A stretch of 64,000 nt of DNA from Allodiplogaster sudhausi (taxonomy: Eukaryota; Nematoda; Chromadorea; Rhabditida; Diplogasteridae): the NCBI GenBank assembly GCA_945643635.1, contig CALZFC010000009.1:3138501-3202500 (forward strand), given 5' to 3'. The notes below the pieces were generated by a model. That model ran no database searches, was not told where the DNA came from, and saw nothing but the letters and a program-made list of their open reading frames with translations. The position numbers and the translations under genes were made by a program. Each line of letters begins with the position of its first letter. Within the stretch, counting starts at the first letter, position 1. Of this stretch, positions 6,088-41,966 are shown in pieces.

Positions 6088-8769
6088 ATGAAAAATATTC
6101 GGGAGTTGATGAGTGTTGCGAAACGTCGGAAACATTCCACGTGCAGAAAACCGGATCATCCAAGAGCATCACTAGACATCGCTCACCCATTCAGTTCCTT
6201 TTAGAAATGCGTAGGATGCCGCACATGTGTCACAGTCAGATTGTGCAATGAATCATATTGTGCAATATCTGCTCTGTGGTTCGTTGCAGGCGTCACTCTT
6301 CAGTTCATCGAAGACGACTTGGCGCATTCGCAGAATAACTGTACCTACTCCATGGAATACTCACGTCGTAAAGACTCGCCTACTTCTTCTGGCACCATGT
6401 CTTCTATTCTTGCCAAACCGGAGTTTTCGAAGTGGTCTACATTTGTGACATGTTTGTTTCGGATTTCTACTAAATCTTCTTCTGTAGGTGCAATTTGAAA
6501 TAAGCAAAGCGCACCAAAATTAAGTGGAGAAGCCGCATGCCAAAGACGACTGTTCGGATGTATTCCTCTACGACGTCACGGCCTTTGAGAAGAGTGAATC
6601 CGAGTGCTTGAGCCGTCCTCCTGCGCCTAATCCTCCACCATCGAATCGAACGAATGAACATGGCGACGGCAGTTGTGTTCAAATGCCCTTTGAGGCATCC
6701 GACCTTCTCCTCAATGGCCGCCCGAGAAATGAAGTTGTTCGGGAAGTCATCTCCGATTTCGCAAGTGGACTTCGCGATTTCGACCACTTACAGGTTTGAC
6801 GTCTGATTCTCTTTTTATATCTTCACTACTTTTCATTGTTTAGACCGGGATTGCTAAATTCAACCGCGAGGTGAAGATCAGGTCGCTAAGAGCCATTATT
6901 GGCGGCATCGCCGATGAAGTCGAAAGAAAGAGGAGAGAGGAAAAAATGTTGCTTTTGCTTACCCGGATAGCGCAGGTTGCAAACCAAGCGGATGAGCTCT
7001 TCACTCAGGTTCTTTTTATACTTTTATGCTCGTTAAATTGTCATGTCATCCTTGCTACGTGCAGAACCTGCCAGTTCTCTCCGCAGCCAGTGCTGTTCGT
7101 TCCGTGTCACTGTCTCAGAAGCAATCAGCTTGCATCCTCGCTCTCGCCTTCTTCTGCACCTTTCCTTCTCAACGTCTTGTCTTCGACAATCTAGCAAAAA
7201 AACGAAGAAGGATCAACATGACTCGGTCTGCTCGCATTTGATCTCTTTAGTTTCCATCATGTTTATGACTTTTGGTTACAAAAAACTTTGCAATATATTA
7301 CTGTACGTGCTTTTGAGCTTCCATACCAACACGGACGCACTGGCGCTCGAGAAGATGAAGATTATTCTTTCGTACTTCACTCAAGTAACCTAATTTATTT
7401 TATTTTCTTTCTTTATTTAAGGTGTACATTAAGTAACACACGTGGATACATATATATGTAACATGTATTTGTGAATCAGTTCGCTCAGAGTCTCATCAAT
7501 TTCAGGTTACAAATGAGATGCCGATTGGGGCTATTTCGATTCGGAAAGTGGAATGGACAGAGGAAGTTGTGGACTGGCGAAGCAATGAGACGCTTATTTC
7601 GAACGCGAAGCTTTTAGCACGACACGACTTTCTCATCGAGGATGCCGATGGATTTCTCCAGGTTTCACTTCAAGAGAATTCCGCAATGAAAAATGGTGTG
7701 AGAGGTCTTCCTGACGAGTGTTTCATGTCTCATCAGGTTGACTTCGCGAATAAGTACATTGGCGGCGGAGTTCTTGATCATGGTGCAGTCCATGAAGAAA
7801 TTCGCTTCCTCATCACCCCTGAACTCCTCATTTCACTCCTCATCTGCGAGAAGATGACTGACAACTTAGCCTTTGTCATCACTGGCGCTCAGCGCTTCTC
7901 CAATTATACTGGGTAAATCATTCGTTCCAATTAGTCAGATGGCTTCTGCATGTTCATTGCTATAAGCGTGATGTTCAGATACGGTTCGAAGCTCCGTTTC
8001 TGCTCGTCCCCACCAAGGAGAGAGGAGTTGCGAGATTCCCTGGGACGCGCCAACGTCCACGTGGTGGCCATGGATGCTACGCCGTATCGAAGGGGCAAGG
8101 CAGCGCAGTATGAAGAGGCCGCATTCAAGCGGGAACTTGTCAAGGTTTTAATTTTTCTTAATTCCCTGTCAGAGTAATATCGCAGCGTTGTATACGGTAA
8201 CTCCATTCGAGTTCTGTAGAATTCATTCCAATGAACTATAACAACGCAATCTTTGAATACTGAGAAGTTCCGGTGGAAGTTGATGGGGGTGATTTTTTTT
8301 CAATTTTAAGCTATGTATTTCGTTTGAGGTATGCGCCGGATTCTCGCGGAATGAGGAAGACCCAGCGAGGCCAGTCGCGACCGGGAATTGGGGTTGTGGC
8401 GCGTTCAGAGGCGATGCTCAACTCAAAAGTACGAAGTATTGTGCAAATTGCCGAAGATGTTGTTAAGTCAAAAAATCCATTCCTAGGCCTCATTCAACTT
8501 GTGGCCGCGGTAAAGACAGGACGCGACATCGCTTATTTCACCTTTGGTGATCGCGAACTCGCTAGCGATTTTGCACGCATTTATGAATGCCTCTGCAATC
8601 TGCGCGTCACCATTGGTATATCCCTTTTTTTATATTTCTACTTGCTTTATATCCAACAATTCAAATTATATCTTCAGGCCAGCTCTACTTGTGGATCTCG
8701 GAATACCCTGGGGATTCCTCAATGTTTTCTCATATCGAGATGAATTGTGATCGTTTGGAAAAATGGTGA
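6088..8769 (+). CDS. parg: poly(ADP-ribose) glycohydrolase (PARG)
   Basis: Hydrolyses poly(ADP-ribose) chains to ADP-ribose after DNA damage. Phase-consistent exons: 6290-6367, about 6525-6793, 6844-7008, 7065-7225, 7318-7384, 7506-7661, 7737-7912, 7979-8144, 8329-8428, 8487-8615 and 8678-8769. Recognised blocks in family order: VQMPF, a helical region ending ALAFFCTFP, VDFANKYIGGG, then VLDHGAVHEEIRF, FVITGAQRFSNYTGY, VAMDATPYRR, ATGNWGCGAF, and DIAYFTFGDREL. The macrodomain fold with the GGG loop, catalytic Glu pair, clasp tyrosine (YTGY) and GNWGCGAF is complete. The signature reads HEE where the family almost always has QEE. The N-terminus is unresolved: ATG 6088 opens a lysine/arginine-rich 38-codon frame (KRRK) that could be a first exon carrying a nuclear signal. 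Confidence is high for 6525 onward, low for the start. Confidence 0.9.
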
Positions 8770-11600: not shown

Positions 11601-11606
11601 AATGCC
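11601..11606. other. left target-site duplication AATGCC of the giant palindrome
   Basis: AATGCC immediately precedes the first palindromic base (11607) and recurs immediately after the last one (26544-26549) in the same orientation. The expected chance of an exact 6-bp match is about 1 in 4096. Confidence 0.7.
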
Positions 11607-11629
11607 ATGATGATAGTGCTCATGTTCTT

Positions 11630-11790
11630 GGTCGATCGAAATTTTTCTAAGTCCAGAACTCCCGTTGAAATTTTCGACCGCTATTTTTCTAAGTCCAGAA
11701 GTCTCAGTTGAAATTATCACCAGATATTTTTCTAAGTCCAGAACGTCCCGTTGAAAATTTTCCCGTAATTTTTCCAAGTCCAGGATTCAT
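11630..11790. repeat. terminal ~44-bp tandem repeat array (left end)
   Basis: Four units spaced about 44 bp carry the core TTTTTC(T/C)AAGTCCAG followed by GTTGAAATTTTC. The mirror copy occupies about 26360-26520. The AAGTCC core also recurs irregularly further inside the arm (for example 11821, 12207, 12598, 13067). Confidence 0.85.
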
Positions 11791-11796
11791 TCCACC

Positions 11797-12960
11797 ATGT
11801 TCTTGGTCGATCGAAATATTACAAGTCCAGGATCCTGACAGGATCCGAACCTGGGTCGCTTGCGTCGTAAGTCCCCGCGTTACCAATCGGCCAATCGTCC
11901 ATCATACCAAGTAGCAAGTGAAGATGTAGACATTCGTGTGGAAGTGATCATACATTAAAGATCACACATCATTCACCGGAGGGGGGAATATTGTCAAGTA
12001 TGCTGGCTGAATTATCGCAAGTCCCGAACACTGAGAGGAATCGAACCTGAGCCGCTTGCGTCGTATGTAGTATCGTTACCAATGGGCTATTCGGTCATCA
12101 TACCAGATTGCAAGTGAAGATGTAGACATTCGTGTGGAATGTGATCATAAATCACATGATCACAGATTATGCCCAGGGGGGTAATATTTTTCAGCCAGTG
12201 GTAATATCACAAGTCCGGAATAAATACAGCAATTGATATTGCCCCGAGGAGGAATCGAACCTGGGACCTTACGATTTGAAAACGAACACACTACCAATGA
12301 GCCAATCTGACGTCATACCAACTCGCATCTGAATATGTAGACATACAAACGTGTATGTAGAAGCGATACATATTTTCCCAAAAACCCCGTAAATTATTCA
12401 GATACAGGAATATTGTCCAAGTCCGAAACCCCCCCTGAATATTACTTTTAAAATCATGCAAGAACATATTCACCAGTGTACATGTATCATACCAACTTGC
12501 AAGTAAAGATGTAGACATTCGTGTGGAATGTGATCATACATCACATGATCACAGATTATGTCCAAGGGTATAATATTTTTTAGCCAGTGGAAATATCACA
12601 AGTCCGGAATAAATAGAGCAAATGATATTGCTCCGACAGGAGTCGAACCCGAGCCGCTTGCGTCGAAAGTTGTATCGTTACCAATGGGCCAAATGGCCAT
12701 CATAACAGATTAGAACTGAATATGTAGACTTTCGTGTGAATGTGATCATACATCAGAGATCACAGATCATACCCCAGGGGAGATTCACTCCTCGTTTTTA
12801 ATTTCACAAGTCCAGATCTCGGCCAGTAGACATATGTATCACAAGTCCCGAATAAATACAGCAATTGAATTTGCCTAAAGGAGAAATGCAACATCGGAAT
12901 TTTTGATTTGTAAACGAACCACTACCAATGTGTCAATGAGCCAATCGGCCGTCATACCAG
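11797..12960 (-). repeat. array of tRNA-like (Pol III box) modules, left arm
   Basis: At least four clear modules on the minus strand (about 11835-11905, 12034-12105, 12245-12316, 12634-12705) and a decayed one at about 12880-12955. Each has an A-box-like TTGGCTCATTGGTAG or GGCCGATTGGTAACG, then GACGCAAGCG, then a B-box-like GGTTCGATTCC. Between modules lies a shared segment with TGTGATCATGTG and CACACGAATGTCTACATC. The module plus linker repeats every 200-400 bp. Acceptor and anticodon stems do not pair well, so these look like tRNA-derived, SINE-like sequences and not functional tRNAs. Confidence 0.7.
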
Positions 12961-13139
12961 CTCCCAATTGAACGTGTGCGCATACATACGTACATGTACA
13001 AGTGACAAGTTATACAATAATATATTCCCAACTCCAAACACTCCATGAATTTATATCATTACATTTTCACAAGTCCAGGAAGAATGAGTAGTGAGAGGAT
13101 GAACAAACTGTACGGAAATATTCTCCAGTGTACAAGCAT

Positions 13140-13915
13140 AAATTAAGAACAAGTATTTCAATGTACTCTATTTAGTATATTGGGCCCAACATTTAGGCAG
13201 TACAATGACAGTTGGCAATGCAAAGACATGAATCGTTAGTGCATACATATAGTACAATGAAAACAGCAAATGAGGGATGTCAATAGCTGTGTATAAAGTA
13301 AGAGAAACTATTATCGAAAATCTCGAAATAAATAAATGAAGGAAGAAAGCTATCGGCCTCCCTGTAATATTAGTTACAAAGATATAGGCATTCATACGTA
13401 TATGTTCAAGTGATACAATAATTTATTCCAAGTTCAAAAGCCTACCTAGAATAATTCACCATCGTATTTTTCCAAGTCCATTATAATTTTTTTCCAGGAA
13501 GAAGAAACATACATAATTTATAGTATGCATCAAGAACAAGTATTTCAATGTACTCTATTTAGTATATTGGGCCCAACATTTAGGCAGTACAAAGACAGTT
13601 GGCAATGCAAAGACATGAATCGTTAGTGCATACATATAGTACAATGAAAACAGCAAATGAGGGATGTCAATAGCTGTGTATAAAGTAAGAGAAACTATTA
13701 TCGAAAATCTCGAAATAAATAAATGAAGGAAGAAAGCTATCCGCCTCCCTGTAATATTAGTTACAAAGATATAGGCATTCATACGTATATGTTCAAGTGA
13801 TACAATAATTTATTCCAAGTTCAAAAGCCTACCTAGAATAATTCACCATCGTATTTTTCCAAGTCCATTATAATTTTTATCCAGGAAGAAGAAACATACA
13901 TATTTTATAGTATGC
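13140..13915. repeat. 387-bp tandem duplication in left arm
   Basis: Two adjacent copies at a period of 387 bp, each containing a 75-codon minus-strand frame that differs at two residues between copies. The mirrored copies in the right arm (24368-24595 and 24755-24982) keep exactly the same two differences. The tandem duplication therefore predates the arm duplication or the last homogenisation of the arms. Confidence 0.9.
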
Positions 13916-13979
13916 ATCTGCCTCTAAAATGACGACCAAGTATTTAATGAACTCCAATCGGTAGACGTAAATTATTTTG

Positions 13980-14760
13980 TCAATGTTAGTAAGTCGATTG
14001 TTTCAAGAAACAGAAGTGATGAACGCACGTTACAATGTTATTTAATTCGATTAGCCTATAACAAATAAGCTGTGATACGAGGAAGTTCTACAGAAAAACA
14101 ATTATATTAGAATACACAACTAACCAAAAAATTGTTGTTATAGTTCAATAGTCAGATACATAACTAATGTATATCCAATAAGTTCAGTTCGAATTACCAA
14201 TTCAAGTATGCAACTTATGAATATTATGTACATACAAAAAGGAATTGTCAATGAATGGTTAACTCATATATCATATCAGTTGGACGTAAATAAAGATATA
14301 CATTGCCAACGCCAAGGAAGGCATCTAGAACGAAGCCACAAACAATACATTTGATAGCGAAAGTCTAACAGTTACTTTGCTTCCTACTCTATGCACTAGT
14401 AATATTGAAATTGACGATGTGAAAGACGATCCGTTCTTCATTGTCTGTTACCACATGTTTGACAGATTCTACTCATCTTACATTTCGACCTTTTTATAGA
14501 ATGTCTAAGAAGAAATCGTAAGCGTGAATTATTTGTCAATGTTAGTTGGTCGATTGTTTTACGAAGCATATGTGGATGTACTCAAGTTTCACATTAATGT
14601 TGTTTAACTCGATTAGCCTATAACAAATAAGCTGTGATACTAGGGAGTTCTACAAAAAAACAATTATAAAACAAGACACAACTCACCAAAACAATTCTTG
14701 GTGAAGTTCAATAGTCAGACACATAACGAATATATCCATTAAGAATATTGTGTACATACA
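13980..14760. repeat. diverged duplication in left arm
   Basis: A segment around 14040-14110 (GATTAGCCTATAACAAATAA and its context, with a GTTCTAC motif) recurs around 14605-14675 with substitutions. It is an older internal duplication at about 565-bp spacing, and it is mirrored in the right arm. Confidence 0.75.
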
Positions 14761-17103
14761 AAACATATTCACAGAGAATGGTTAATACATATATCGTATC
14801 AGTTGGACGTATATAAAGAAGATGCTGCAAACACGGAGGAAACCAAGTGTGCATCACAAACAATACATTTGATTATGAAAGTCACAAATTGCAAACAGTT
14901 ATCTTGACTCCTTCTCTATGCAATACCAATATTGAAAGGTGATTTTGCTGTCGTTCTCGATATGTAATATGATCTGTTCATCATTGAAGAAACTTTCTTG
15001 TCAATACAACAGTAGTATTGAAAGTAATGTTGGTTCCATATTCGAAATGGAATATGATCATCATTCATTGTCTAATGTAAGGTCAAAATGTTGACAGTTT
15101 CCTCCTCAATGTTTTTCAATCATTCTTGGTACATCGAAATATTACAAGCCAAAGAACACCATGGTGAACAAGAGTGCAAGTACTCTACATACATTGTTTA
15201 TTGCACACCGAGGCCGGAACATATTGAAACGAAATCGTATTATTAATAATAAATTTACTGTGGGGCACCACAGGAGGTGGGATATGCTATTGAGTATGAG
15301 TCGGAATCACATATATATGGGGTTCTATCACTAAGGAAAGCGCAGTAGAAGTTTAAGAGACCACATAACTTCACAATTTTATCATACTAAAAAGAATAGA
15401 AGTTGAGTCAAAGATCTAAGAAAAAAAAAAGATTAGGGCTATAGAAATATAGTGTTTCTAATCTAATTCGTTGTGGTTTTTTAGATGACAGACTAAAGAA
15501 AAGAGAGTTCGCAGGAATGGTGGATCGGTATCCAAATTGTGCTGGACTTAGAAGATTATGTTTGTTTAGGTAATTCAGTATGAGGATACAAATTATACGT
15601 TCTATTACCTTGGAGGTTGAGGAGATTGGACAGAAGGGTTCCCAGGATCAGACAGTTCCCGGGATCAGACTTAATACATTTTTGATTATAAACAGGACGC
15701 ACTATCGCAGTAAGTAAATGAATATGTAGAAGGAACTGAATGAACATAATAAAAACTGGGATGCAAGAAATAGTAGAGGTTTCTTTCATGTAAACATATG
15801 GAATTTAGCCGGAGGAGGTAATATTTCTAAATGAAAGGCTGAGAATTTTTATTCATTTATTCATTTATATGTACATCCAAAGGGGGATATGACATGAAGA
15901 TAATTGAACAACAATTCACGCAGCAAGAGCATGGCATGTACGCAGAATTTCCAGTACATAATATTAGATGAAAAGAGAAGAAAGAAATTATGTAACTAAT
16001 AGAAACGATATGTAGACTCAATGACACTAAAGTACAATAGAAAAGTAATAGATAATATATAAAGATAATTATTTAGAGGAGCGTTTACGCATTATTCACA
16101 AGGATATTTAGTATAAGTGGACGAGGGTACAGATAGTTGACAAGACAGAGTATGATACATAGTTGAAATGCACTAACACATACCACAACCAAAGTGCTGA
16201 AGTTAATGCAAAATGGAAAGATACTAGTCATGTATGGCAAAGGTGTGACGAGGTAGAAGACTCAGAGGATTGGACATTACATATCATGGAACTCAACATA
16301 GATTTTATTGTTCTTCAAATGACAGCTTAATAGTTATGTTTCATATGTCTAAGTAATCATATGTCTAAGCAATAGCACACTCACCACAATGAAGATACAT
16401 TTCAGCTGCATTCTGAAAGGACTCCATCTTAATTACAATAAAAGGAGGAATGACAGACTAAGGCTTCTTAGCCTCAACAGTATTCATTCGGTAGGAGATG
16501 ATATATGATGGAGTGAAGTAAAAGGTCTATCTATGCATCTATGTATATGGTACCTATGCCAACGAACTACATTAATTTTACAAGATTAGTAGGACTGAGC
16601 ATATTTTGTTATTATTTAGAGAGTTACACGATAATGGATGCACACTTTCCAATTCGTTTACTTGCAATTTTCTCATGTTCATACAAGTGGTATTAAAAGA
16701 AAGATTTCTGTATGCACGAGTCAGTAAAGTTGTAAAGAGGAGAGGGGTTAGCAATAGTGTGGGAAATATACATGAACTTTTCCGAACTTTTCTATTACTC
16801 CTAAATCTTTGTAACTGTTTATTTATTTAATTATGTTAATCAAAGCGGGCATGATTTAACAACATTTGACGTAGCAATAGTGTGGAATAAATATAAACAG
16901 AATATCCTAAACACAAGAAGAACATTTCATGAAGCCATAACATATTTAACAAGTATCATTTCTCGTAATATATACTTAAAATAAGTTTTATCATTATCAT
17001 ATCTACAAGGATTTAGAAGAAGAACATATATTTCACAGAACAATGTAGGTATTAAGCGAAATTGGGAAAGGATGCTTTACAATCAGCAGCAGTCATCTTG
17101 ATC

Positions 17104-17550
17104 TTATAGCGCCACTGAGAGAAATTCCAGAGGGAAGAAAGCGTTGTCGGCTGACGAAACTAGAGGTATGTTAGGGGCATGCACTTGTGAACCATGTTGA
17201 CAGAACATGTATTCCTGAATTATTCGATTTGTAAAACAAATAAAAAGAATGGCAGTAAAATATAAAAAAAAGACCTGAATGGAGACCCTGACAGGTATTA
17301 TACCGAGAGAACTGTGATGCCCTGCGACATTCAATCGAGCAGTGATGCGCGTCGATGAGTTTGAGCCTGGGAGAATGCGTGGCTGATTGATGATGAAGTT
17401 TTCGATGAGGTGGTTAGTGCGAATTCGTTCCTTTCGAAGGATGTTATTGATTGAGTCAATCTCGTCCGTTGTGAGAGTACTCGTCGCCAAGTGTGAAGAA
17501 GAGATATATAGGGAGAGGAATGAAGTCTGGCAAGACCATGATCGCTGCAA
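17104..17550 (-). pseudogene. gene-like reading frame inside left arm (unrecognised)
   Basis: A 148-codon frame with a higher GC content and more coding-like codons than the surrounding arm. The middle part (TTDEIDSINNILRKERIR to IIPVRVSIQ) looks coding. It is followed by a possible 60-nt intron (GTCTTT...TTCAG) in the same frame and a short second exon to the stop. An AG acceptor precedes the frame, so it may be an internal exon of a captured gene fragment. No family was recognised. The exact copy at 20600-21046 is on the opposite strand in the other arm. Confidence 0.4.
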
Positions 17551-18359
17551 CTCTGTTTATCATTGAAAGCATTACCAATTTTATAAATAACATCAACACT
17601 TACGATAATAATTATACATCAAAGAAAAATTGAAAAAAAAAATGTAAAAAAAAGAACTAATAGTTTGCCGCTGTAAGTAGCGAGACATAAACCAACAAGC
17701 AAATCAACAATCCGATATCTGCGAAGGAAGATGTAATTCTTATCAGTCCTTAGGATCATAAAGGAGAGAGCTAAAATATGTGACAACTAAAGTGAAGAGA
17801 AATAGTATAGGTTAGAAGACATAGAAACAAAAACACGAAAAAAATAAATAACGAAAACAGAGATACTTGTTCTTCACCATTTTATCTGTTACTTTAGACC
17901 ATGGCTATCCTTAACTCTATTGAATTTTGAAAACATTATTTAAAAATCTGATACACACCATCAACACATTCACTAATAATGATACATCCAAGAAAATGAA
18001 TGATATGTAAAATGAAAAAAATTCATAGCCATTCTAAGTAATATATATGTAACAAGGACAGTGAAGAAAAATAGTATTGGTAAGAAGACTTAGTAAAGGC
18101 AACAAAGATTGAATAAATCTTACTTCATAATTTCTTCAGTTACATGTATGTTCTATTTTCTTTGTATTGGATGTTGCACCATAAGAAACGTTTGAAACGT
18201 CACCTGTACAAAAATTCTTTATTTGGCCTGTTAAAAACAAACTGTGATGTAATGTTTATTGACTGTGCTGACCTTGTCTATGCCATGAAGGATTTTGTGA
18301 CTGAAGATCACACTTTGCGTTTTGTTCTTACTTAAATAAATTTGTCGAAGAACATTAAT

Positions 18360-19012
18360 GCAACTACTTGGACAAAGAGAGAAATAGAGAAGAAGTAATA
18401 CAAACCTTAGTGTCACATTTTGGAATCTTCCTGGTAAATGTTTCTTACAATCAGACAAGACACTTGTTCACAAAATTTAAGACACCACACGCAAGAAAAA
18501 AAATCACTTACATCAACGTTGTCGTACTTTGTCATATCGTTGTTGGAAACTTAATGAACTATCTTTACCAATTATATTCGGAAAAAGAAGACATAGACAT
18601 GTAAAATAACATGTAAAGTCAGTATTTAGACAATGAGAGAAATAGACAAGAAGTAATACAAACCATAGTGCCACATCTTGGAATCTTACTGGTAAATGTT
18701 TCCTACAAACAGATACTTGTTCAAACACTTTAGAAAAAATATGCAAGAAAAAAATCACTTACATCAACGTGGTCATACTTTGCCTTATCGTTGTTGGAAA
18801 CTTAATGCACTATCTTTACCAATTATATTCGGAAAAAGAAGACATAGACATGTAAAATAACATGTAAAGTGAGTACTTAGATAATGAGAGAAACAGACAA
18901 GAAGTAATACAAACCATAGTGTCACATCTTGGAATCTTGCTTGCAAATTTTTCCAACAAACAGACAAGACAAATGAAGACAACAGACTCAAAATTGGTTG
19001 TTCACACAACAT
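18360..19012. repeat. ~250-bp tandem repeats next to the spacer, left arm
   Basis: About 2.6 copies of a unit of about 250 bp, with anchors TGTTGGAAACTTAATG at 18541 and 18792 and CATGTAAAATAACATGTAAAG near 18597 and 18849. The units differ by several substitutions and small indels. The same array is mirrored at about 19137-19790. Confidence 0.85.
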
Positions 19013-19037
19013 AAGAAAACATACTACGTAACCAGTT

Positions 19038-19111
19038 CGCAACGAATCACCCCTCTCAAATTGTCTCTGTAATTTTTCTAAGTCCAAAATCAAAGTTGAA
19101 ATTTTTCATCT
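19038..19111. other. 74-bp unpaired spacer at palindrome centre
   Basis: This is the only non-palindromic part of the element. It contains one TTTTTCTAAGTCCAAAATC...GTTGAAATTTTTC unit, the same repeat that forms the outer ends of the element. The arms meet it at AACCAGTT (left) and AACTGGTT (right). Confidence 0.9.
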
Positions 19112-20599
19112 AACTGGTTACGTAGTATGTTTTCTTATGTTGTGTGAACAACCAATTTTGAGTCTGTTGTCTTCATTTGTCTTGTCTGTTTGTTGGAAAA
19201 ATTTGCAAGCAAGATTCCAAGATGTGACACTATGGTTTGTATTACTTCTTGTCTGTTTCTCTCATTATCTAAGTACTCACTTTACATGTTATTTTACATG
19301 TCTATGTCTTCTTTTTCCGAATATAATTGGTAAAGATAGTGCATTAAGTTTCCAACAACGATAAGGCAAAGTATGACCACGTTGATGTAAGTGATTTTTT
19401 TCTTGCATATTTTTTCTAAAGTGTTTGAACAAGTATCTGTTTGTAGGAAACATTTACCAGTAAGATTCCAAGATGTGGCACTATGGTTTGTATTACTTCT
19501 TGTCTATTTCTCTCATTGTCTAAATACTGACTTTACATGTTATTTTACATGTCTATGTCTTCTTTTTCCGAATATAATTGGTAAAGATAGTTCATTAAGT
19601 TTCCAACAACGATATGACAAAGTACGACAACGTTGATGTAAGTGATTTTTTTTCTTGCGTGTGGTGTCTTAAATTTTGTGAACAAGTGTCTTGTCTGATT
19701 GTAAGAAACATTTACCAGGAAGATTCCAAAATGTGACACTAAGGTTTGTATTACTTCTTCTCTATTTCTCTCTTTGTCCAAGTAGTTGCATTAATGTTCT
19801 TCGACAAATTTATTTAAGTAAGAACAAAACGCAAAGTGTGATCTTCAGTCACAAAATCCTTCATGGCATAGACAAGGTCAGCACAGTCAATAAACATTAC
19901 ATCACAGTTTGTTTTTAACAGGCCAAATAAAGAATTTTTGTACAGGTGACGTTTCAAACGTTTCTTATGGTGCAACATCCAATACAAAGAAAATAGAACA
20001 TACATGTAACTGAAGAAATTATGAAGTAAGATTTATTCAATCTTTGTTGCCTTTACTAAGTCTTCTTACCAATACTATTTTTCTTCACTGTCCTTGTTAC
20101 ATATATATTACTTAGAATGGCTATGAATTTTTTTCATTTTACATATCATTCATTTTCTTGGATGTATCATTATTAGTGAATGTGTTGATGGTGTGTATCA
20201 GATTTTTAAATAATGTTTTCAAAATTCAATAGAGTTAAGGATAGCCATGGTCTAAAGTAACAGATAAAATGGTGAAGAACAAGTATCTCTGTTTTCGTTA
20301 TTTATTTTTTTCGTGTTTTTGTTTCTATGTCTTCTAACCTATACTATTTCTCTTCACTTTAGTTGTCACATATTTTAGCTCTCTCCTTTATGATCCTAAG
20401 GACTGATAAGAATTACATCTTCCTTCGCAGATATCGGATTGTTGATTTGCTTGTTGGTTTATGTCTCGCTACTTACAGCGGCAAACTATTAGTTCTTTTT
20501 TTTTACATTTTTTTTTTCAATTTTTCTTTGATGTATAATTATTATCGTAAGTGTTGATGTTATTTATAAAATTGGTAATGCTTTCAATGATAAACAGAG

Positions 20600-21046
20600 T
20601 TGCAGCGATCATGGTCTTGCCAGACTTCATTCCTCTCCCTATATATCTCTTCTTCACACTTGGCGACGAGTACTCTCACAACGGACGAGATTGACTCAAT
20701 CAATAACATCCTTCGAAAGGAACGAATTCGCACTAACCACCTCATCGAAAACTTCATCATCAATCAGCCACGCATTCTCCCAGGCTCAAACTCATCGACG
20801 CGCATCACTGCTCGATTGAATGTCGCAGGGCATCACAGTTCTCTCGGTATAATACCTGTCAGGGTCTCCATTCAGGTCTTTTTTTTATATTTTACTGCCA
20901 TTCTTTTTATTTGTTTTACAAATCGAATAATTCAGGAATACATGTTCTGTCAACATGGTTCACAAGTGCATGCCCCTAACATACCTCTAGTTTCGTCAGC
21001 CGACAACGCTTTCTTCCCTCTGGAATTTCTCTCAGTGGCGCTATAA
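20600..21046 (+). pseudogene. mirror copy of the gene-like frame, right arm
   Basis: Same translation as the minus-strand frame at 17104-17550, here on the plus strand. If expressed, the two copies would give identical products from divergent positions. The acceptor-like AAACAG lies just upstream at about 20593-20598. Confidence 0.4.
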
Positions 21047-24000
21047 GATCAAGATGACTGCTGCTGATTGTAAAGCATCCTTTCCCAATTTCGCTTAATA
21101 CCTACATTGTTCTGTGAAATATATGTTCTTCTTCTAAATCCTTGTAGATATGATAATGATAAAACTTATTTTAAGTATATATTACGAGAAATGATACTTG
21201 TTAAATATGTTATGGCTTCATGAAATGTTCTTCTTGTGTTTAGGATATTCTGTTTATATTTATTCCACACTATTGCTACGTCAAATGTTGTTAAATCATG
21301 CCCGCTTTGATTAACATAATTAAATAAATAAACAGTTACAAAGATTTAGGAGTAATAGAAAAGTTCGGAAAAGTTCATGTATATTTCCCACACTATTGCT
21401 AACCCCTCTCCTCTTTACAACTTTACTGACTCGTGCATACAGAAATCTTTCTTTTAATACCACTTGTATGAACATGAGAAAATTGCAAGTAAACGAATTG
21501 GAAAGTGTGCATCCATTATCGTGTAACTCTCTAAATAATAACAAAATATGCTCAGTCCTACTAATCTTGTAAAATTAATGTAGTTCGTTGGCATAGGTAC
21601 CATATACATAGATGCATAGATAGACCTTTTACTTCACTCCATCATATATCATCTCCTACCGAATGAATACTGTTGAGGCTAAGAAGCCTTAGTCTGTCAT
21701 TCCTCCTTTTATTGTAATTAAGATGGAGTCCTTTCAGAATGCAGCTGAAATGTATCTTCATTGTGGTGAGTGTGCTATTGCTTAGACATATGATTACTTA
21801 GACATATGAAACATAACTATTAAGCTGTCATTTGAAGAACAATAAAATCTATGTTGAGTTCCATGATATGTAATGTCCAATCCTCTGAGTCTTCTACCTC
21901 GTCACACCTTTGCCATACATGACTAGTATCTTTCCATTTTGCATTAACTTCAGCACTTTGGTTGTGGTATGTGTTAGTGCATTTCAACTATGTATCATAC
22001 TCTGTCTTGTCAACTATCTGTACCCTCGTCCACTTATACTAAATATCCTTGTGAATAATGCGTAAACGCTCCTCTAAATAATTATCTTTATATATTATCT
22101 ATTACTTTTCTATTGTACTTTAGTGTCATTGAGTCTACATATCGTTTCTATTAGTTACATAATTTCTTTCTTCTCTTTTCATCTAATATTATGTACTGGA
22201 AATTCTGCGTACATGCCATGCTCTTGCTGCGTGAATTGTTGTTCAATTATCTTCATGTCATATCCCCCTTTGGATGTACATATAAATGAATAAATGAATA
22301 AAAATTCTCAGCCTTTCATTTAGAAATATTACCTCCTCCGGCTAAATTCCATATGTTTACATGAAAGAAACCTCTACTATTTCTTGCATCCCAGTTTTTA
22401 TTATGTTCATTCAGTTCCTTCTACATATTCATTTACTTACTGCGATAGTGCGTCCTGTTTATAATCAAAAATGTATTAAGTCTGATCCCGGGAACTGTCT
22501 GATCCTGGGAACCCTTCTGTCCAATCTCCTCAACCTCCAAGGTAATAGAACGTATAATTTGTATCCTCATACTGAATTACCTAAACAAACATAATCTTCT
22601 AAGTCCAGCACAATTTGGATACCGATCCACCATTCCTGCGAACTCTCTTTTCTTTAGTCTGTCATCTAAAAAACCACAACGAATTAGATTAGAAACACTA
22701 TATTTCTATAGCCCTAATCTTTTTTTTTTCTTAGATCTTTGACTCAACTTCTATTCTTTTTAGTATGATAAAATTGTGAAGTTATGTGGTCTCTTAAACT
22801 TCTACTGCGCTTTCCTTAGTGATAGAACCCCATATATATGTGATTCCGACTCATACTCAATAGCATATCCCACCTCCTGTGGTGCCCCACAGTAAATTTA
22901 TTATTAATAATACGATTTCGTTTCAATATGTTCCGGCCTCGGTGTGCAATAAACAATGTATGTAGAGTACTTGCACTCTTGTTCACCATGGTGTTCTTTG
23001 GCTTGTAATATTTCGATGTACCAAGAATGATTGAAAAACATTGAGGAGGAAACTGTCAACATTTTGACCTTACATTAGACAATGAATGATGATCATATTC
23101 CATTTCGAATATGGAACCAACATTACTTTCAATACTACTGTTGTATTGACAAGAAAGTTTCTTCAATGATGAACAGATCATATTACATATCGAGAACGAC
23201 AGCAAAATCACCTTTCAATATTGGTATTGCATAGAGAAGGAGTCAAGATAACTGTTTGCAATTTGTGACTTTCATAATCAAATGTATTGTTTGTGATGCA
23301 CACTTGGTTTCCTCCGTGTTTGCAGCATCTTCTTTATATACGTCCAACTGATACGATATATGTATTAACCATTCTCTGTGAATATGTTTTGTATGTACAC
23401 AATATTCTTAATGGATATATTCGTTATGTGTCTGACTATTGAACTTCACCAAGAATTGTTTTGGTGAGTTGTGTCTTGTTTTATAATTGTTTTTTTGTAG
23501 AACTCCCTAGTATCACAGCTTATTTGTTATAGGCTAATCGAGTTAAACAACATTAATGTGAAACTTGAGTACATCCACATATGCTTCGTAAAACAATCGA
23601 CCAACTAACATTGACAAATAATTCACGCTTACGATTTCTTCTTAGACATTCTATAAAAAGGTCGAAATGTAAGATGAGTAGAATCTGTCAAACATGTGGT
23701 AACAGACAATGAAGAACGGATCGTCTTTCACATCGTCAATTTCAATATTACTAGTGCATAGAGTAGGAAGCAAAGTAACTGTTAGACTTTCGCTATCAAA
23801 TGTATTGTTTGTGGCTTCGTTCTAGATGCCTTCCTTGGCGTTGGCAATGTATATCTTTATTTACGTCCAACTGATATGATATATGAGTTAACCATTCATT
23901 GACAATTCCTTTTTGTATGTACATAATATTCATAAGTTGCATACTTGAATTGGTAATTCGAACTGAACTTATTGGATATACATTAGTTATGTATCTGACT

Positions 24001-25189
24001 ATTGAACTATAACAACAATTTTTTGGTTAGTTGTGTATTCTAATATAATTGTTTTTCTGTAGAACTTCCTCGTATCACAGCTTATTTGTTATAGGCTAAT
24101 CGAATTAAATAACATTGTAACGTGCGTTCATCACTTCTGTTTCTTGAAACAATCGACTTACTAACATTGACAAAATAATTTACGTCTACCGATTGGAGTT
24201 CATTAAATACTTAGTCGTCATTTTAGAGGCAGATGCATACTATAAAATATGTATGTTTCTTCTTCCTGGATAAAAATTATAATGGACTTGGAAAAATACG
24301 ATGGTGAATTATTCTAGGTAGGCTTTTGAACTTGGAATAAATTATTGTATCACTTGAACATATACGTATGAATGCCTATATCTTTGTAACTAATATTACA
24401 GGGAGGCGGATAGCTTTCTTCCTTCATTTATTTATTTCGAGATTTTCGATAATAGTTTCTCTTACTTTATACACAGCTATTGACATCCCTCATTTGCTGT
24501 TTTCATTGTACTATATGTATGCACTAACGATTCATGTCTTTGCATTGCCAACTGTCTTTGTACTGCCTAAATGTTGGGCCCAATATACTAAATAGAGTAC
24601 ATTGAAATACTTGTTCTTGATGCATACTATAAATTATGTATGTTTCTTCTTCCTGGAAAAAAATTATAATGGACTTGGAAAAATACGATGGTGAATTATT
24701 CTAGGTAGGCTTTTGAACTTGGAATAAATTATTGTATCACTTGAACATATACGTATGAATGCCTATATCTTTGTAACTAATATTACAGGGAGGCCGATAG
24801 CTTTCTTCCTTCATTTATTTATTTCGAGATTTTCGATAATAGTTTCTCTTACTTTATACACAGCTATTGACATCCCTCATTTGCTGTTTTCATTGTACTA
24901 TATGTATGCACTAACGATTCATGTCTTTGCATTGCCAACTGTCATTGTACTGCCTAAATGTTGGGCCCAATATACTAAATAGAGTACATTGAAATACTTG
25001 TTCTTAATTTATGCTTGTACACTGGAGAATATTTCCGTACAGTTTGTTCATCCTCTCACTACTCATTCTTCCTGGACTTGTGAAAATGTAATGATATAAA
25101 TTCATGGAGTGTTTGGAGTTGGGAATATATTATTGTATAACTTGTCACTTGTACATGTACGTATGTATGCGCACACGTTCAATTGGGAG

Positions 25190-26353
25190 CTGGTATGACG
25201 GCCGATTGGCTCATTGACACATTGGTAGTGGTTCGTTTACAAATCAAAAATTCCGATGTTGCATTTCTCCTTTAGGCAAATTCAATTGCTGTATTTATTC
25301 GGGACTTGTGATACATATGTCTACTGGCCGAGATCTGGACTTGTGAAATTAAAAACGAGGAGTGAATCTCCCCTGGGGTATGATCTGTGATCTCTGATGT
25401 ATGATCACATTCACACGAAAGTCTACATATTCAGTTCTAATCTGTTATGATGGCCATTTGGCCCATTGGTAACGATACAACTTTCGACGCAAGCGGCTCG
25501 GGTTCGACTCCTGTCGGAGCAATATCATTTGCTCTATTTATTCCGGACTTGTGATATTTCCACTGGCTAAAAAATATTATACCCTTGGACATAATCTGTG
25601 ATCATGTGATGTATGATCACATTCCACACGAATGTCTACATCTTTACTTGCAAGTTGGTATGATACATGTACACTGGTGAATATGTTCTTGCATGATTTT
25701 AAAAGTAATATTCAGGGGGGGTTTCGGACTTGGACAATATTCCTGTATCTGAATAATTTACGGGGTTTTTGGGAAAATATGTATCGCTTCTACATACACG
25801 TTTGTATGTCTACATATTCAGATGCGAGTTGGTATGACGTCAGATTGGCTCATTGGTAGTGTGTTCGTTTTCAAATCGTAAGGTCCCAGGTTCGATTCCT
25901 CCTCGGGGCAATATCAATTGCTGTATTTATTCCGGACTTGTGATATTACCACTGGCTGAAAAATATTACCCCCCTGGGCATAATCTGTGATCATGTGATT
26001 TATGATCACATTCCACACGAATGTCTACATCTTCACTTGCAATCTGGTATGATGACCGAATAGCCCATTGGTAACGATACTACATACGACGCAAGCGGCT
26101 CAGGTTCGATTCCTCTCAGTGTTCGGGACTTGCGATAATTCAGCCAGCATACTTGACAATATTCCCCCCTCCGGTGAATGATGTGTGATCTTTAATGTAT
26201 GATCACTTCCACACGAATGTCTACATCTTCACTTGCTACTTGGTATGATGGACGATTGGCCGATTGGTAACGCGGGGACTTACGACGCAAGCGACCCAGG
26301 TTCGGATCCTGTCAGGATCCTGGACTTGTAATATTTCGATCGACCAAGAACAT
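25190..26353 (+). repeat. array of tRNA-like (Pol III box) modules, right arm
   Basis: Mirror of the left-arm array, in readable orientation on the plus strand. Modules lie at about 25195-25270 (decayed), 25445-25516, 25834-25905, 26045-26116 and 26245-26315. The best B-box is GGTTCGATTCC at about 25889-25899, preceded by TTGGCTCATTGGTAG at about 25848-25862. Confidence 0.7.
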
Positions 26354-26539
26354 GGTGGAATGAATCCTGGACTTGGAAAAATTACGGGAAAATTTTCAAC
26401 GGGACGTTCTGGACTTAGAAAAATATCTGGTGATAATTTCAACTGAGACTTCTGGACTTAGAAAAATAGCGGTCGAAAATTTCAACGGGAGTTCTGGACT
26501 TAGAAAAATTTCGATCGACCAAGAACATGAGCACTATCA

Positions 26540-26818
26540 TCATAATGCCAGTTGGTCCTTTAGAATGAGCCCATGTTTCCGCTGTTTATGCTTTGATCTT
26601 GCGCTTCGCTGCATGAACAGAACATTATTTTGAGAAGAAAACGCGTAGCATCTTGAAAGACCTTGCGTAGTTGAGTGTAATGCTGAGTTCAAGCAGCTCT
26701 TGAGGAAAAAAGACTTCACAGACTCGAAGAGTAAGCTCATCCCGAGTGTTTGGAGAGGCTTGTCGAAAACTGCGGACAATGTCCTGGCGTTAAACTTTTT
26801 GTACGATTTACGTTTCAC
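26540..26818 (-). other. weak 92-codon ORF abutting the palindrome
   Basis: Basic, serine-rich frame with no recognised domain. Its 3' end lies exactly at the insertion point of the palindromic element. Reading across the empty site would close the frame two codons later, so the element sits at the very end of this frame. Coding status is unproven. Confidence 0.2.
26544..26549. other. right target-site duplication AATGCC of the giant palindrome
   Basis: Direct repeat of 11601-11606, abutting the last palindromic base. Confidence 0.7.
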
Positions 26819-40279: not shown

Positions 40280-41966
40280 ATGTCATTAACTGAGTTGATC
40301 GCGAAGCTTCGCGAAATCTTTGCGGATGACCAAGTGGATGTGGACGAGGTGATGAAGGCTATGGAATCATACAAAAGCAACCGCGCAGACTGGCTCAAGT
40401 ACGCGCAGTTCGACATGAACAAGTCAGTAATCTCTCTCTCCCTCTCTCTCTCTCTCTATTTTTCTCTGTTTCTCTCTCTCTCTCTCTCGCTCCCTTCTTC
40501 CTTTCCACTGTCGCTTAATAATATAAAAATAATTGTCAGGTACACCCGCAATCTCGTCGATATTGGCAATGGCAAGTACAACTTGATGATCCTTTGCTGG
40601 GGGCCGAGCATGGGCAGCAGGTTTGTCATTCAATGCTTAATTGATGTTAAGGAATCTTTATTTCTTTTAAAAATGAGTGCTACAGACCATCGGGCAAATC
40701 AATGACGAAACGTGATCATTTAGCATTCACGACCACACTGATGCGCATTGTTTCGTGAAGGTCCTCGATGGACAATTGCAAGAAACAAAGTATGAATGGC
40801 CTAAGCCAGATTCGGACGAGCCCCTCCAAGTCAAAGAGAGCACCGTCTACGATAAAAACGGAGTCTCCTACATGAGCGGTATGATTGTTATTATTAATTT
40901 TTTTTATTATATTTTCATAGTTTTCATGCCATATCAGCTGTTTCATATTTTGCCTTGCGAGGCTGCTCAAAAGACCAATCACGTGGCTCAATTGTGCGCC
41001 AAAGGAGTCAAGCTGCCTGGCGACACCTTGACAGAAATGTGCAGACTGCCACAGAAAGAGAGATATAGAGAGAAACTTATTAATAAGAACAACAGTAAAA
41101 CGATAAGGCAGACAACATGTGAAGCTATATTAATGTTTAGAACGCGCGAGAAAACAGCAAACGAGACAGGGAAAAATCGGAAGGAAAGAGTGTAGATTGC
41201 TGAGTAAATTAGACTGTGCACTTCTTGAGTGAAGTGGCAGCAAATTCGAGAAATTCGCTAAAACGAGCCATGTGGCCCTCCTAATCGTCTCGAATTTTCT
41301 TATTTGTCCCCAGTGCTGTTCTGGGGTCTCAACACCGGTTTACTGAGTGAGAGCATAAGAACAATAAGATGATAAATCGAATACTAAAAATGGATTAATA
41401 AGAACGACAATTTGATGATAAATCGATTAATAAGAACACTAAGATGATCAATCGATTAATCAAAATTCTCTCTCCCGCTATTCCTTCAGACACCCTCGGC
41501 TTACATCGAATGGAGAACTTGAGTCACTCTGACGGAGCCGTCTCTCTCCATCTCTACATCCCTCCATATCTCACGTGCAATGCCTTCGATGAGGTTGGCC
41601 ATGGCCAATCTTGCAATTATTTCGAGTTTCTTTGCCAGTCATTTTCTCAACAACAATTGTTAAGTCGTGTTGACATTTGAAATGAAATTGAATTAGTGAC
41701 TAAGAGTCGATTGTTTCTTTTATCACAAGTAATTGAAATTTGACGATGAAAAAGAAAGTAGCGATGTTAAACGGAAACTGCATCTGCAATTGAATGAAAC
41801 GTGACAACCTCAATTTCAGCGGACCGGACGGAAGACAAAGTGTCAGGTGACATTCTATTCAAAGTACGGCCAAAAGGTGGATTACCGCGGTAACAAAGAG
41901 GGCACAGTTGTCGATTTCCCAACGACCGTCGACTACCCTACCACGGTCTGCAACACCACCGCGTAG
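40280..41966 (+). CDS. cdo1: cysteine dioxygenase type 1
   Basis: Oxidises L-cysteine to cysteine sulfinate, the first step of cysteine catabolism toward taurine and sulfate, in the cytosol. Five exons: 40280-40422, 40540-40620, 40724-40878, 41490-41593 and 41820-41966, all in phase, giving 209 aa, close to the ~200 aa of animal CDO. Seen residues: [18 protein letters not shown], then the cupin motif [13 protein letters not shown] with two iron-binding histidines and the cysteine of the Cys-Tyr cofactor. [10 protein letters not shown] supplies the third histidine. SLHLYIPPY carries the cross-linking tyrosine. The thioether pair and all ligands are intact, so the enzyme should be active. Intron 1 is almost entirely a CT repeat. 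Intron 3 (611 nt) contains three imperfect copies of a unit with GATAAATCGATTAATAAGAA. A TTTTTAG acceptor-like sequence ends one base before the ATG. Confidence 0.96.
40426..40500. repeat. (CT)n tract in CDO intron 1
   Basis: Pyrimidine repeat filling most of the 117-nt first intron of the cysteine dioxygenase gene, downstream of the donor. Confidence 0.9.

What the first reader, a model, noticed from the sequence alone, without database searches (positions are those of the whole stretch)
11601..26549. 15-kb near-perfect palindrome bounded by a 6-bp target-site duplication
The arms (7431 and 7432 bp) are inverted copies around a 74-bp spacer. Identity stops exactly at 11607 and 26543, and both edges touch the same direct repeat AATGCC. 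A fold-back assembly error or amplification chimera gives no reason for a direct repeat there, whereas insertion of a mobile element does. No known transposase is encoded, so this would be a giant non-autonomous inverted-repeat element of unnamed type, or one using an unfamiliar enzyme.
Basis: partly seen in the sequence, partly recalled or inferred. Interest (0 to 1): 0.92.

Follow-up and report, generated by a model that had tools for sequence, protein, structure and literature searches.

The report
Snap-back palindrome of a virus-like transposon
This 15-kb near-perfect DNA palindrome, in what is probably a nematode genome, is an inserted, gene-poor relative of a virus-like giant transposon (Polinton/Maverick); it likely formed when replication folded back and copied one end twice, and since relatives with one and the same palindrome centre sit at four separate places, such palindromes probably move as palindromes with borrowed enzymes.

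Summary
In detail: arms 11607-19037 and 19112-26543 match at 99.97% around a 74-bp spacer, and AATGCC abuts both ends. It is a mobile element, but not of unknown type. Its terminal pattern occurs 240 times in its own genome, 0 times read backwards. Relatives with these termini carry a retroviral-type integrase with chromodomain, a family-B polymerase, an adenovirus-type protease and a capsid-like protein: Polinton/Maverick.

Of 40 elements read at both ends, 36 have an exact 6-bp target duplication. Of 37 pairs from a list of termini, 16 have two different ends (15 with an integrase match), 15 the same end twice (2 with a match), 1 is mixed, 5 unclear. Palindromes are built from the left end or the right end. 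One intact hairpin centre sits at four loci, so palindromes move as palindromes.

Best reading, inferred: snap-back (copy-back) defective genomes of a protein-primed linear replicator, integrated in trans. Assembly artefact and in-place conversion explain less. I found no report of this for Polintons in a limited search.

The parts
11601..11606 (.). target-site duplication AATGCC, left copy
   Evidence: exact 6-bp duplications at 36 of 40 family members
26544..26549 (.). target-site duplication AATGCC, right copy
11607..19037 (+). left arm of the palindrome, 7431 bp, begins ATGATGATAGTGCTCATG
19112..26543 (-). right arm of the palindrome, 7432 bp, ends CATGAGCACTATCATCAT
19038..19111 (.). spacer, 74 bp; lies inside both arms of the untrimmed relative C166a, so here the centre is asymmetrically trimmed (left arm runs to C166a half-position 7373, right arm re-enters at 7301)
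11607..12409 (+). Polinton terminal repeat (about 0.8 kb, shared with coding copies), left
   Evidence: 96.6% to the coding copy C29
25741..26543 (-). Polinton terminal repeat, right
12771..19037 (+). gene-poor core shared with other palindromic copies (about 91-98%), left arm; boundary approximate
19112..25379 (-). gene-poor core, right arm; boundary approximate
17104..17556 (-). 150-aa frame related to a 143-aa Polinton frame of unknown function (L022:3766-4194)
20594..21046 (+). mirror copy of the same 150-aa frame
11637..11783 (+). subterminal 42-bp tandem repeats, left
26367..26513 (-). subterminal 42-bp tandem repeats, right
13145..13918 (+). two tandem copies of a 387-bp unit, left arm (mirror at 24232-25005)
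18365..18966 (+). 2.4 tandem copies of a 251-bp unit near the centre, left arm (mirror at 19185-19778)

Best explanation
The palindrome is a non-autonomous Polinton/Maverick insertion with a 6-bp target duplication, and its two arms likely arose when protein-primed replication of a linear element snapped back at its growing or displaced strand and copied one end a second time. Shown: the termini, terminal repeat and 6-bp duplications are those of coding Polinton-type elements in the same genome; palindromic copies carry the same end (left or right) at both termini; one hairpin centre, with a loop of about 5 nt, is shared by palindromes at separate sites; copies differ in their end segments, yet the two arms of one copy agree. 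Inferred: such a fold-back molecule keeps the origin and integrase site at both ends, so enzymes of coding copies would replicate it and integrate it at a new 6-bp target. Each copying through the hairpin would make the arms equal again, and the long hairpin's centre tends to be trimmed afterwards, which would leave the 74-bp spacer seen here. It would thus work like the snap-back defective genomes of adenovirus-type replicators, but fixed in a germ line and mobile.
For: Family: terminal 600 bp found elsewhere (56 matches from 40 scored of 331 candidates); 240 termini against 0 for the reversed control pattern. Coding relatives: rve 5e-9 and Chromo 3e-7, DNA_pol_B_2 4e-9, Peptidase_C5 1e-4, all above Pfam cut-offs; capsid relatives include Caenorhabditis and Pristionchus proteins, the former with a double jelly-roll match. 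Insertion: exact 6-bp duplications in 36 of 40 elements. Copy-back topology: coding copy C245 reads inverted right end for 5.1 kb, then jumps to direct sequence running to the right end again, so the left end and the polymerase region are missing; C237 has the left end twice. On one shared core the end modules differ between copies (left in C166a; right in C35, C268, C44, C125, C261; repeat only here), the same on both arms each time; coding copies are left/right in 3 of 3. In the list of 37 pairs: same-end 15, of which 2 have an integrase match; left/right 16, of which 15 have one. Mobile as a palindrome: the 161-bp centre is intact at four loci, three at 100%; two of these have different duplications, CATAGA and TGCCTT. 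Over 1 kb of core, arms of one copy are 99.8-100% alike in the 6 copies with both arms, while copies are 95.4-99.9% alike.
Against: No free linear, hairpin or packaged form was seen; replication and trans-mobilisation are inferred. Arms are not always equal: C261 inner arms 95.9%, C237 96.8-98.3%, C1:2125415 ends 96.4%. That both arms of a long palindrome carry the same end follows from being a palindrome, so one search is not an independent test. In the 37 pairs, the 9 new same-end cases were judged from 107-450 bp inside each end, not from whole arms. Most of the core (about 6 kb) showed no clear relation to the coding copy C29 apart from the 150-aa frame (output cut; 73), so its origin is unclear. 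The window's own centre is trimmed, so its snap-back point is known only through relatives, and the search with the window's own centre did not complete. At C245 the switch shows at most 1 bp of shared sequence, which does not favour annealing-guided switching there; C44 shows a 7-bp GACCTTG match at one switch.
Confidence: 0.74

Rival explanations
1. In-place conversion: a full Polinton inserted first, and afterwards host break-induced replication or gene conversion, primed by the shared terminal repeats, overwrote one half with an inverted copy of the other.
For: Terminal repeats of about 0.8 kb at both ends would prime it, and the target duplication would survive. C245 and C16:5022866 carry coding arms and may be single events.
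Against: The same palindrome centre at four loci, three identical over 161 bp, with different target duplications at the two where both ends were read, needs a palindrome that moved. Palindromes share a gene-poor core that was not found in the coding copies read.
Confidence: 0.12
2. Assembly or library fold-back artefact.
For: This assembly does hold suspicious fold-backs: C29:708296, C18:2287524 and C46:689218 have inverted host flanks, mirrored at 100% in C29 at 3, 6, 12 and 25 kb and over the 20 bp fetched in the other two. No reads were available.
Against: The window element stops exactly at family termini with a direct 6-bp duplication and unrelated flanks. The three suspicious cases differ in just this respect: no duplication, inverted flanks. 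The arms differ by one substitution and one A, and relatives at other loci share the centre.
Confidence: 0.05
3. A giant inverted-repeat transposon of new type with its own unknown enzyme.
For: No known enzyme is encoded in the window element; the 150-aa frame has no Pfam match.
Against: Termini, terminal repeat, duplication length and the related frame all tie it to coding Polinton-type elements in the same genome, many with an open integrase frame.
Confidence: 0.03
4. Palindromes formed by snap-back and move in trans, but arm equality is kept by host gene conversion between arms (as in primate Y palindromes, recalled), not by copying through a hairpin. This rival concerns that step alone.
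For: Arms within a copy are 99.8-100% alike in 6 copies; host arm-to-arm conversion is known elsewhere (recalled).
Against: C261 and C237 keep 2-4% arm differences within long segments, so host conversion is not fast here.
Confidence: 0.2

Closest known systems
Polinton/Maverick elements (Polintoviricetes); nematode Polintons
   Same: 6-bp target duplication, long terminal inverted repeats, about 15 kb; relatives with the same termini have integrase, polymerase, protease and capsid-like genes. PMC4028283 (passages read) gives 15-20 kb, pPolB, RVE integrase, FtsK-like ATPase and cysteine protease.
   Different: This copy has none of these genes and is one end in two mirror copies; inverted arms of 7.4 kb instead of about 0.8 kb; starts ATGATGA, not the AG recalled for many Polintons.
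Snap-back / symmetric defective genomes of adenoviruses (recalled, e.g. the symmetric recombinant of adenovirus 12; searches listed no paper on them)
   Same: Same end at both termini, inverted duplication around a short loop, other end lost, needs helper proteins (recalled).
   Different: Those are free or packaged DNA in infected cells (recalled); these are germ-line insertions with target duplications that have multiplied.
Invertron-type linear plasmids (kalilo, pAL2-1; PMC1864894, passages read)
   Same: Protein-primed linear DNA with terminal repeats; the paper invokes a snap-back mechanism and panhandle intermediates, and inverted flanks of integrated copies.
   Different: There the host mtDNA is inverted around the insert; here the element itself is the palindrome and the window's host flanks are unrelated (three other loci with inverted flanks are suspected misjoins).
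Foldback, TU and Galileo elements (recalled)
   Same: Very long inverted repeats with internal tandem repeats, few genes.
   Different: Other transposase families and duplication lengths (7-9 bp, recalled); here termini belong to a Polinton.

Membership tests
Polinton/Maverick | 6-bp target-site duplication | tested here: met
   AATGCC; exact in 36 of 40 elements of the family
Polinton/Maverick | long terminal inverted repeats, element about 15-20 kb | tested here: met
   0.8-kb repeat shared with coding copies; 14,937 bp; the 16 left/right copies are 12.0-17.1 kb
Polinton/Maverick | retroviral-type (rve) integrase | tested here: met
   In relatives with the same termini, not in this copy: rve 5.2e-9; 109 genome matches from 106 of 384 candidates scored
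[quoted passage not shown]
   DNA_pol_B_2 3.8e-9 on one frame of C29, above cut-off; the protein-priming subdomains were not tested; absent from this copy
Polinton/Maverick | adenovirus-type cysteine protease | tested here: met
   Peptidase_C5 22.2 bits, cut-off 21.3, in C29; not in this copy
Polinton/Maverick | packaging ATPase | tested here: inconclusive
   P-loop frame; best Pfam AAA_22 and Pox_A32, both below cut-off
Polinton/Maverick | double jelly-roll major capsid protein | tested here: inconclusive
Polinton/Maverick | 5'-AG terminal dinucleotide (recalled as common; not a criterion in the passages read) | tested here: not met
   Starts ATGATGA, as do the coding relatives
Snap-back (copy-back) defective genome of a protein-primed replicator | same parental end at both termini, inverted, other end missing | tested here: met
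   8 palindromes with scorable modules are left/left (2) or right/right (6) (follows from their palindromy); C245 lacks the left end; the window copy has a repeat-only end module, alike on both arms, so its own parental end cannot be named
Snap-back (copy-back) defective genome of a protein-primed replicator | short loop or unpaired stretch at the centre | tested here: met
   About 5 nt in C166a, 74 bp here, longer in others
Snap-back (copy-back) defective genome of a protein-primed replicator | free linear DNA with protein-linked 5' ends, helper-dependent copying | not testable with these tools
   Needs DNA from animals
Foldback/Galileo-type transposon | termini of a P-, hAT- or similar DDE transposon | tested here: not met
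   Termini are those of coding Polinton-type elements

The most novel reading that the evidence does not exclude
Polintons have self-propagating hairpin satellites: fold-back genomes that carry two identical origins and integrase sites, live on the enzymes and perhaps the capsids of coding copies, re-copy one arm from the other at each round, and have come to make up about 40% of the family's insertions in this animal (15 of 37 sampled pairs). They would be the germ-line record of defective interfering genomes of an animal virus-like element, possibly limiting it.
Probability: 0.35. Interest if true: 0.87.

Novelty: new variant of a known kind. Interest (0 to 1): 0.73.

Why it matters
How Polintons copy their DNA is mostly argued from their polymerase gene (recalled). 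Palindromes made of either end, with copy-back breakpoints and shared hairpin centres, are the footprint expected from strand-displacement replication of a linear, end-primed molecule before integration. They make that model testable by sequence alone in any genome with recent Polintons. They also point to a class of parasite of the parasite (defective, mobile in trans) that transposon annotation would list as an unclassified inverted repeat.

Tried and rejected
Considered and rejected: a tRNA-like or other known RNA in the arms (ARAGORN 0 on the window; Rfam only two matches, both below gathering score). A known transposase in the window element. Relatives of the 143-aa Polinton frame in the large protein collection: none of 22 candidates passed. 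Structure prediction of the capsid frame: switched off. The shuffled-partner control is uninformative, because it counts self-pairings (expected about 1 in 27); I use 0.00036 instead. C29 was at first my reference coding copy; its flanks proved to be inverted, so it counts as a miss for the target duplication. C67:211595 and C67:387009 have mirror-image flanks and are probably one insertion duplicated, so the 40 elements are at most 39 independent insertions. The first 12 elements were chosen by similarity to the window end and favour palindromes. The 37 pairs were formed by eye from the 100 termini listed of 240 (26 of the 100 stayed unpaired) and include 9 of those 12. Three of the 37 have inverted flanks and may be misjoined: C18 (counted same-end), C29:708296 and C46:689218 (counted left/right).

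Literature: ten searches. I read passages of PMC4028283, PMC6431247, PMC1864894 and PMC11071308, and search listings of the rest. I saw no report of palindromic Polintons, but the nematode Polinton paper of Jeong 2023 is not held, so absence from print is not shown.
Full report
Observation. The palindrome is as described: arms of 7431 and 7432 bp, 99.97% alike (one substitution, one extra A), a 74-bp spacer, and AATGCC directly outside both arms. The host flanks are unrelated to each other. The window lies in an assembly of 351.8 Mb in 382 contigs. The closest named relatives of a capsid-like frame in sister elements are from Pristionchus (60-64% over half the length) and Caenorhabditis remanei (43%), so the host is probably a nematode; it is not named.

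What family. The terminal 600 bp recur in the genome: 56 matches from the 40 scored of 331 candidates. A degenerate 27-mer of the terminus occurs 240 times (109 forward, 131 reverse, up to one mismatch), against 0 for the same pattern read backwards. Stretches around 11 further pairs were read. Three of them (C29, C60, C166b) carry long frames, and C245 carries part of the set. Pfam finds an rve integrase with chromodomain, a family-B polymerase and an adenovirus-type protease above cut-off, and an ATPase-like frame below cut-off. The 435-aa frame has no match of its own, but its C. remanei relative matches the double jelly-roll domain. This fits the gene set given for Polintons in PMC4028283 (passages read). 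The window element shares the first 0.8 kb with them at about 95%. It also keeps one 150-aa frame related to a Polinton frame of unknown function (49% over 76 aa, E 7e-22). It is therefore a non-autonomous member or derivative.

Target duplications. Of the first 12 elements (the window and 11 others), 10 have an exact 6-bp duplication, C245 has 5 of 6 and C29 has none. Of 28 further pairs, 26 are exact. The three misses without any duplication (C29:708296, C18:2287524, C46:689218) all have inverted host flanks. In C29 the mirror holds at 100% at 3, 6, 12 and 25 kb and is lost at 50 kb; in the other two it holds over the 20 bp fetched. Collapse of the near-identical terminal repeats by the assembler would give just that (inferred). 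These cases show how an artefact may look here; the window element does not look like one.

Palindromes in the family. Seven copies (C9, which is the window; C166a, C35, C268, C125, C44, C261) share one gene-poor core at about 91-98%. A core probe matched at 95% or better in the 40 scored of 89 candidates (2 of them the window itself), often as opposite-strand pairs. C245 is a coding palindrome: 5.1 kb of inverted right end, then a jump to direct sequence that runs to the right end again, without the left end and polymerase region. C237 has the left end at both termini. In the 9 palindromes of this set the end modules differ between copies (2 left/left, 6 right/right, repeat-only here) and agree between the arms. 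The agreement follows from their palindromy; what is informative is that one core carries different ends in different copies, on both arms alike. The three coding controls are left/right.

Census. From the 100 listed of 240 termini, 37 inward-facing pairs were formed. Beyond the 0.8-kb repeat their ends are the same in 15, left/right in 16, mixed in 1 and unclear in 5. For 6 of the 15 whole arms were read; for the other 9 only 107-450 bp inside each end. The 15 comprise 6 left/left, 4 right/right and 5 with repeat or core only. An integrase match lies inside 2 of the 15, 15 of the 16, the mixed one (two copies in opposite orientation), and 2 of the 5 (Fisher, same-end against left/right, 7e-6). 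Integrase counts are lower bounds: 106 of 384 candidates were scored.

The centre. In C166a the arms run to a loop of about 5 nt. The window's spacer lies inside both arms of C166a, so the window centre is trimmed: left arm to half-position 7373, right arm from 7301. C44 and C268 keep the same hairpin tip but have lost other parts of the arms. The 161-bp centre is intact at four loci, at 100% in C166, C27 and C6 and 94% in C340, and in diverged form (74%) in C262; parts of about half its length occur at 13 further loci, and 47 bp of it in the window (all 25 candidates scored). The C6 centre is the middle of a pair with its own duplication, TGCCTT; C166a has CATAGA. A palindrome has thus moved as a palindrome. 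In C44 one switch near the tip shares GACCTTG.

Arms change together. Over a 1-kb stretch of core, the two arms of one copy are 99.8-100% alike in the 6 copies with both arms there, while copies differ by up to 4.6%. Exceptions elsewhere are C261 (inner arms 95.9%) and C237 (96.8-98.3%), and C1:2125415 (ends 96.4%).

Mechanism. Inferred: during strand-displacement copying of a linear, end-primed molecule, the strand folds back and copies itself to the end. The product has the same origin and integrase site twice, needs no genes of its own, and is integrated by the integrase of coding copies with a 6-bp duplication. Copying through the hairpin would explain equal arms; host gene conversion is the rival for that point alone. 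Trimmed centres fit the known instability of long palindromes (recalled). In-place conversion fails to explain one centre at several sites. None of the replication steps was observed.

Known or new. Polintons are known, snap-back genomes are known for adenovirus-type replicators (recalled), and invertron plasmids are discussed with snap-back and panhandle intermediates (PMC1864894, passages). I saw no report of mobile palindromic Polintons in ten searches, but the nematode Polinton paper is not held.

Noticed in passing
G000 C29:708296-724115 (L004, L005, L042-L051), C18:2287524-2305775, C46:689218-703050: Family elements in the middle of inverted host flanks, 100% mirrored out to at least 25 kb in C29; probably misjoins through collapsed terminal repeats, otherwise recent large inverted duplications.
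   Followed up: partly
G000 C248:1455248-1473638 and C126:611105-615161: A second integrase lineage (about 60% identity) also occurs as opposite-strand pairs 3.3-6.6 kb apart; palindromes may arise in a second Polinton lineage too.
   Followed up: no
G000 C44:111100, 123016, 134932: Three copies of the palindrome core on one strand, spaced by exactly 11,916 bp: a tandem array or an assembly repeat.
   Followed up: no
G000 C16:5022866-5037215 (L064, L065): Element with two integrase frames in opposite orientation and partly different ends: probably a coding palindrome.
   Followed up: partly
36 target sites: Target hexamers lean towards a symmetric NACGTN-like preference, as expected of an integrase acting on both strands.
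   Followed up: no
G000 C67:211595-218655 and C67:387009-393257: Two elements with mirror-image flanks, so probably one insertion within an inverted duplication.
   Followed up: no
window 7437-8743 and 40716-41195: Host gene exons with Pfam matches to poly(ADP-ribose) glycohydrolase (strong in the first exon, below cut-off in the second) and cysteine dioxygenase.
   Followed up: no
window 17104-17556 (-) and 20594-21046 (+): The longest open frame of the palindrome, related to a Polinton frame without Pfam match or database relatives; whether it is used is unknown.
   Followed up: partly
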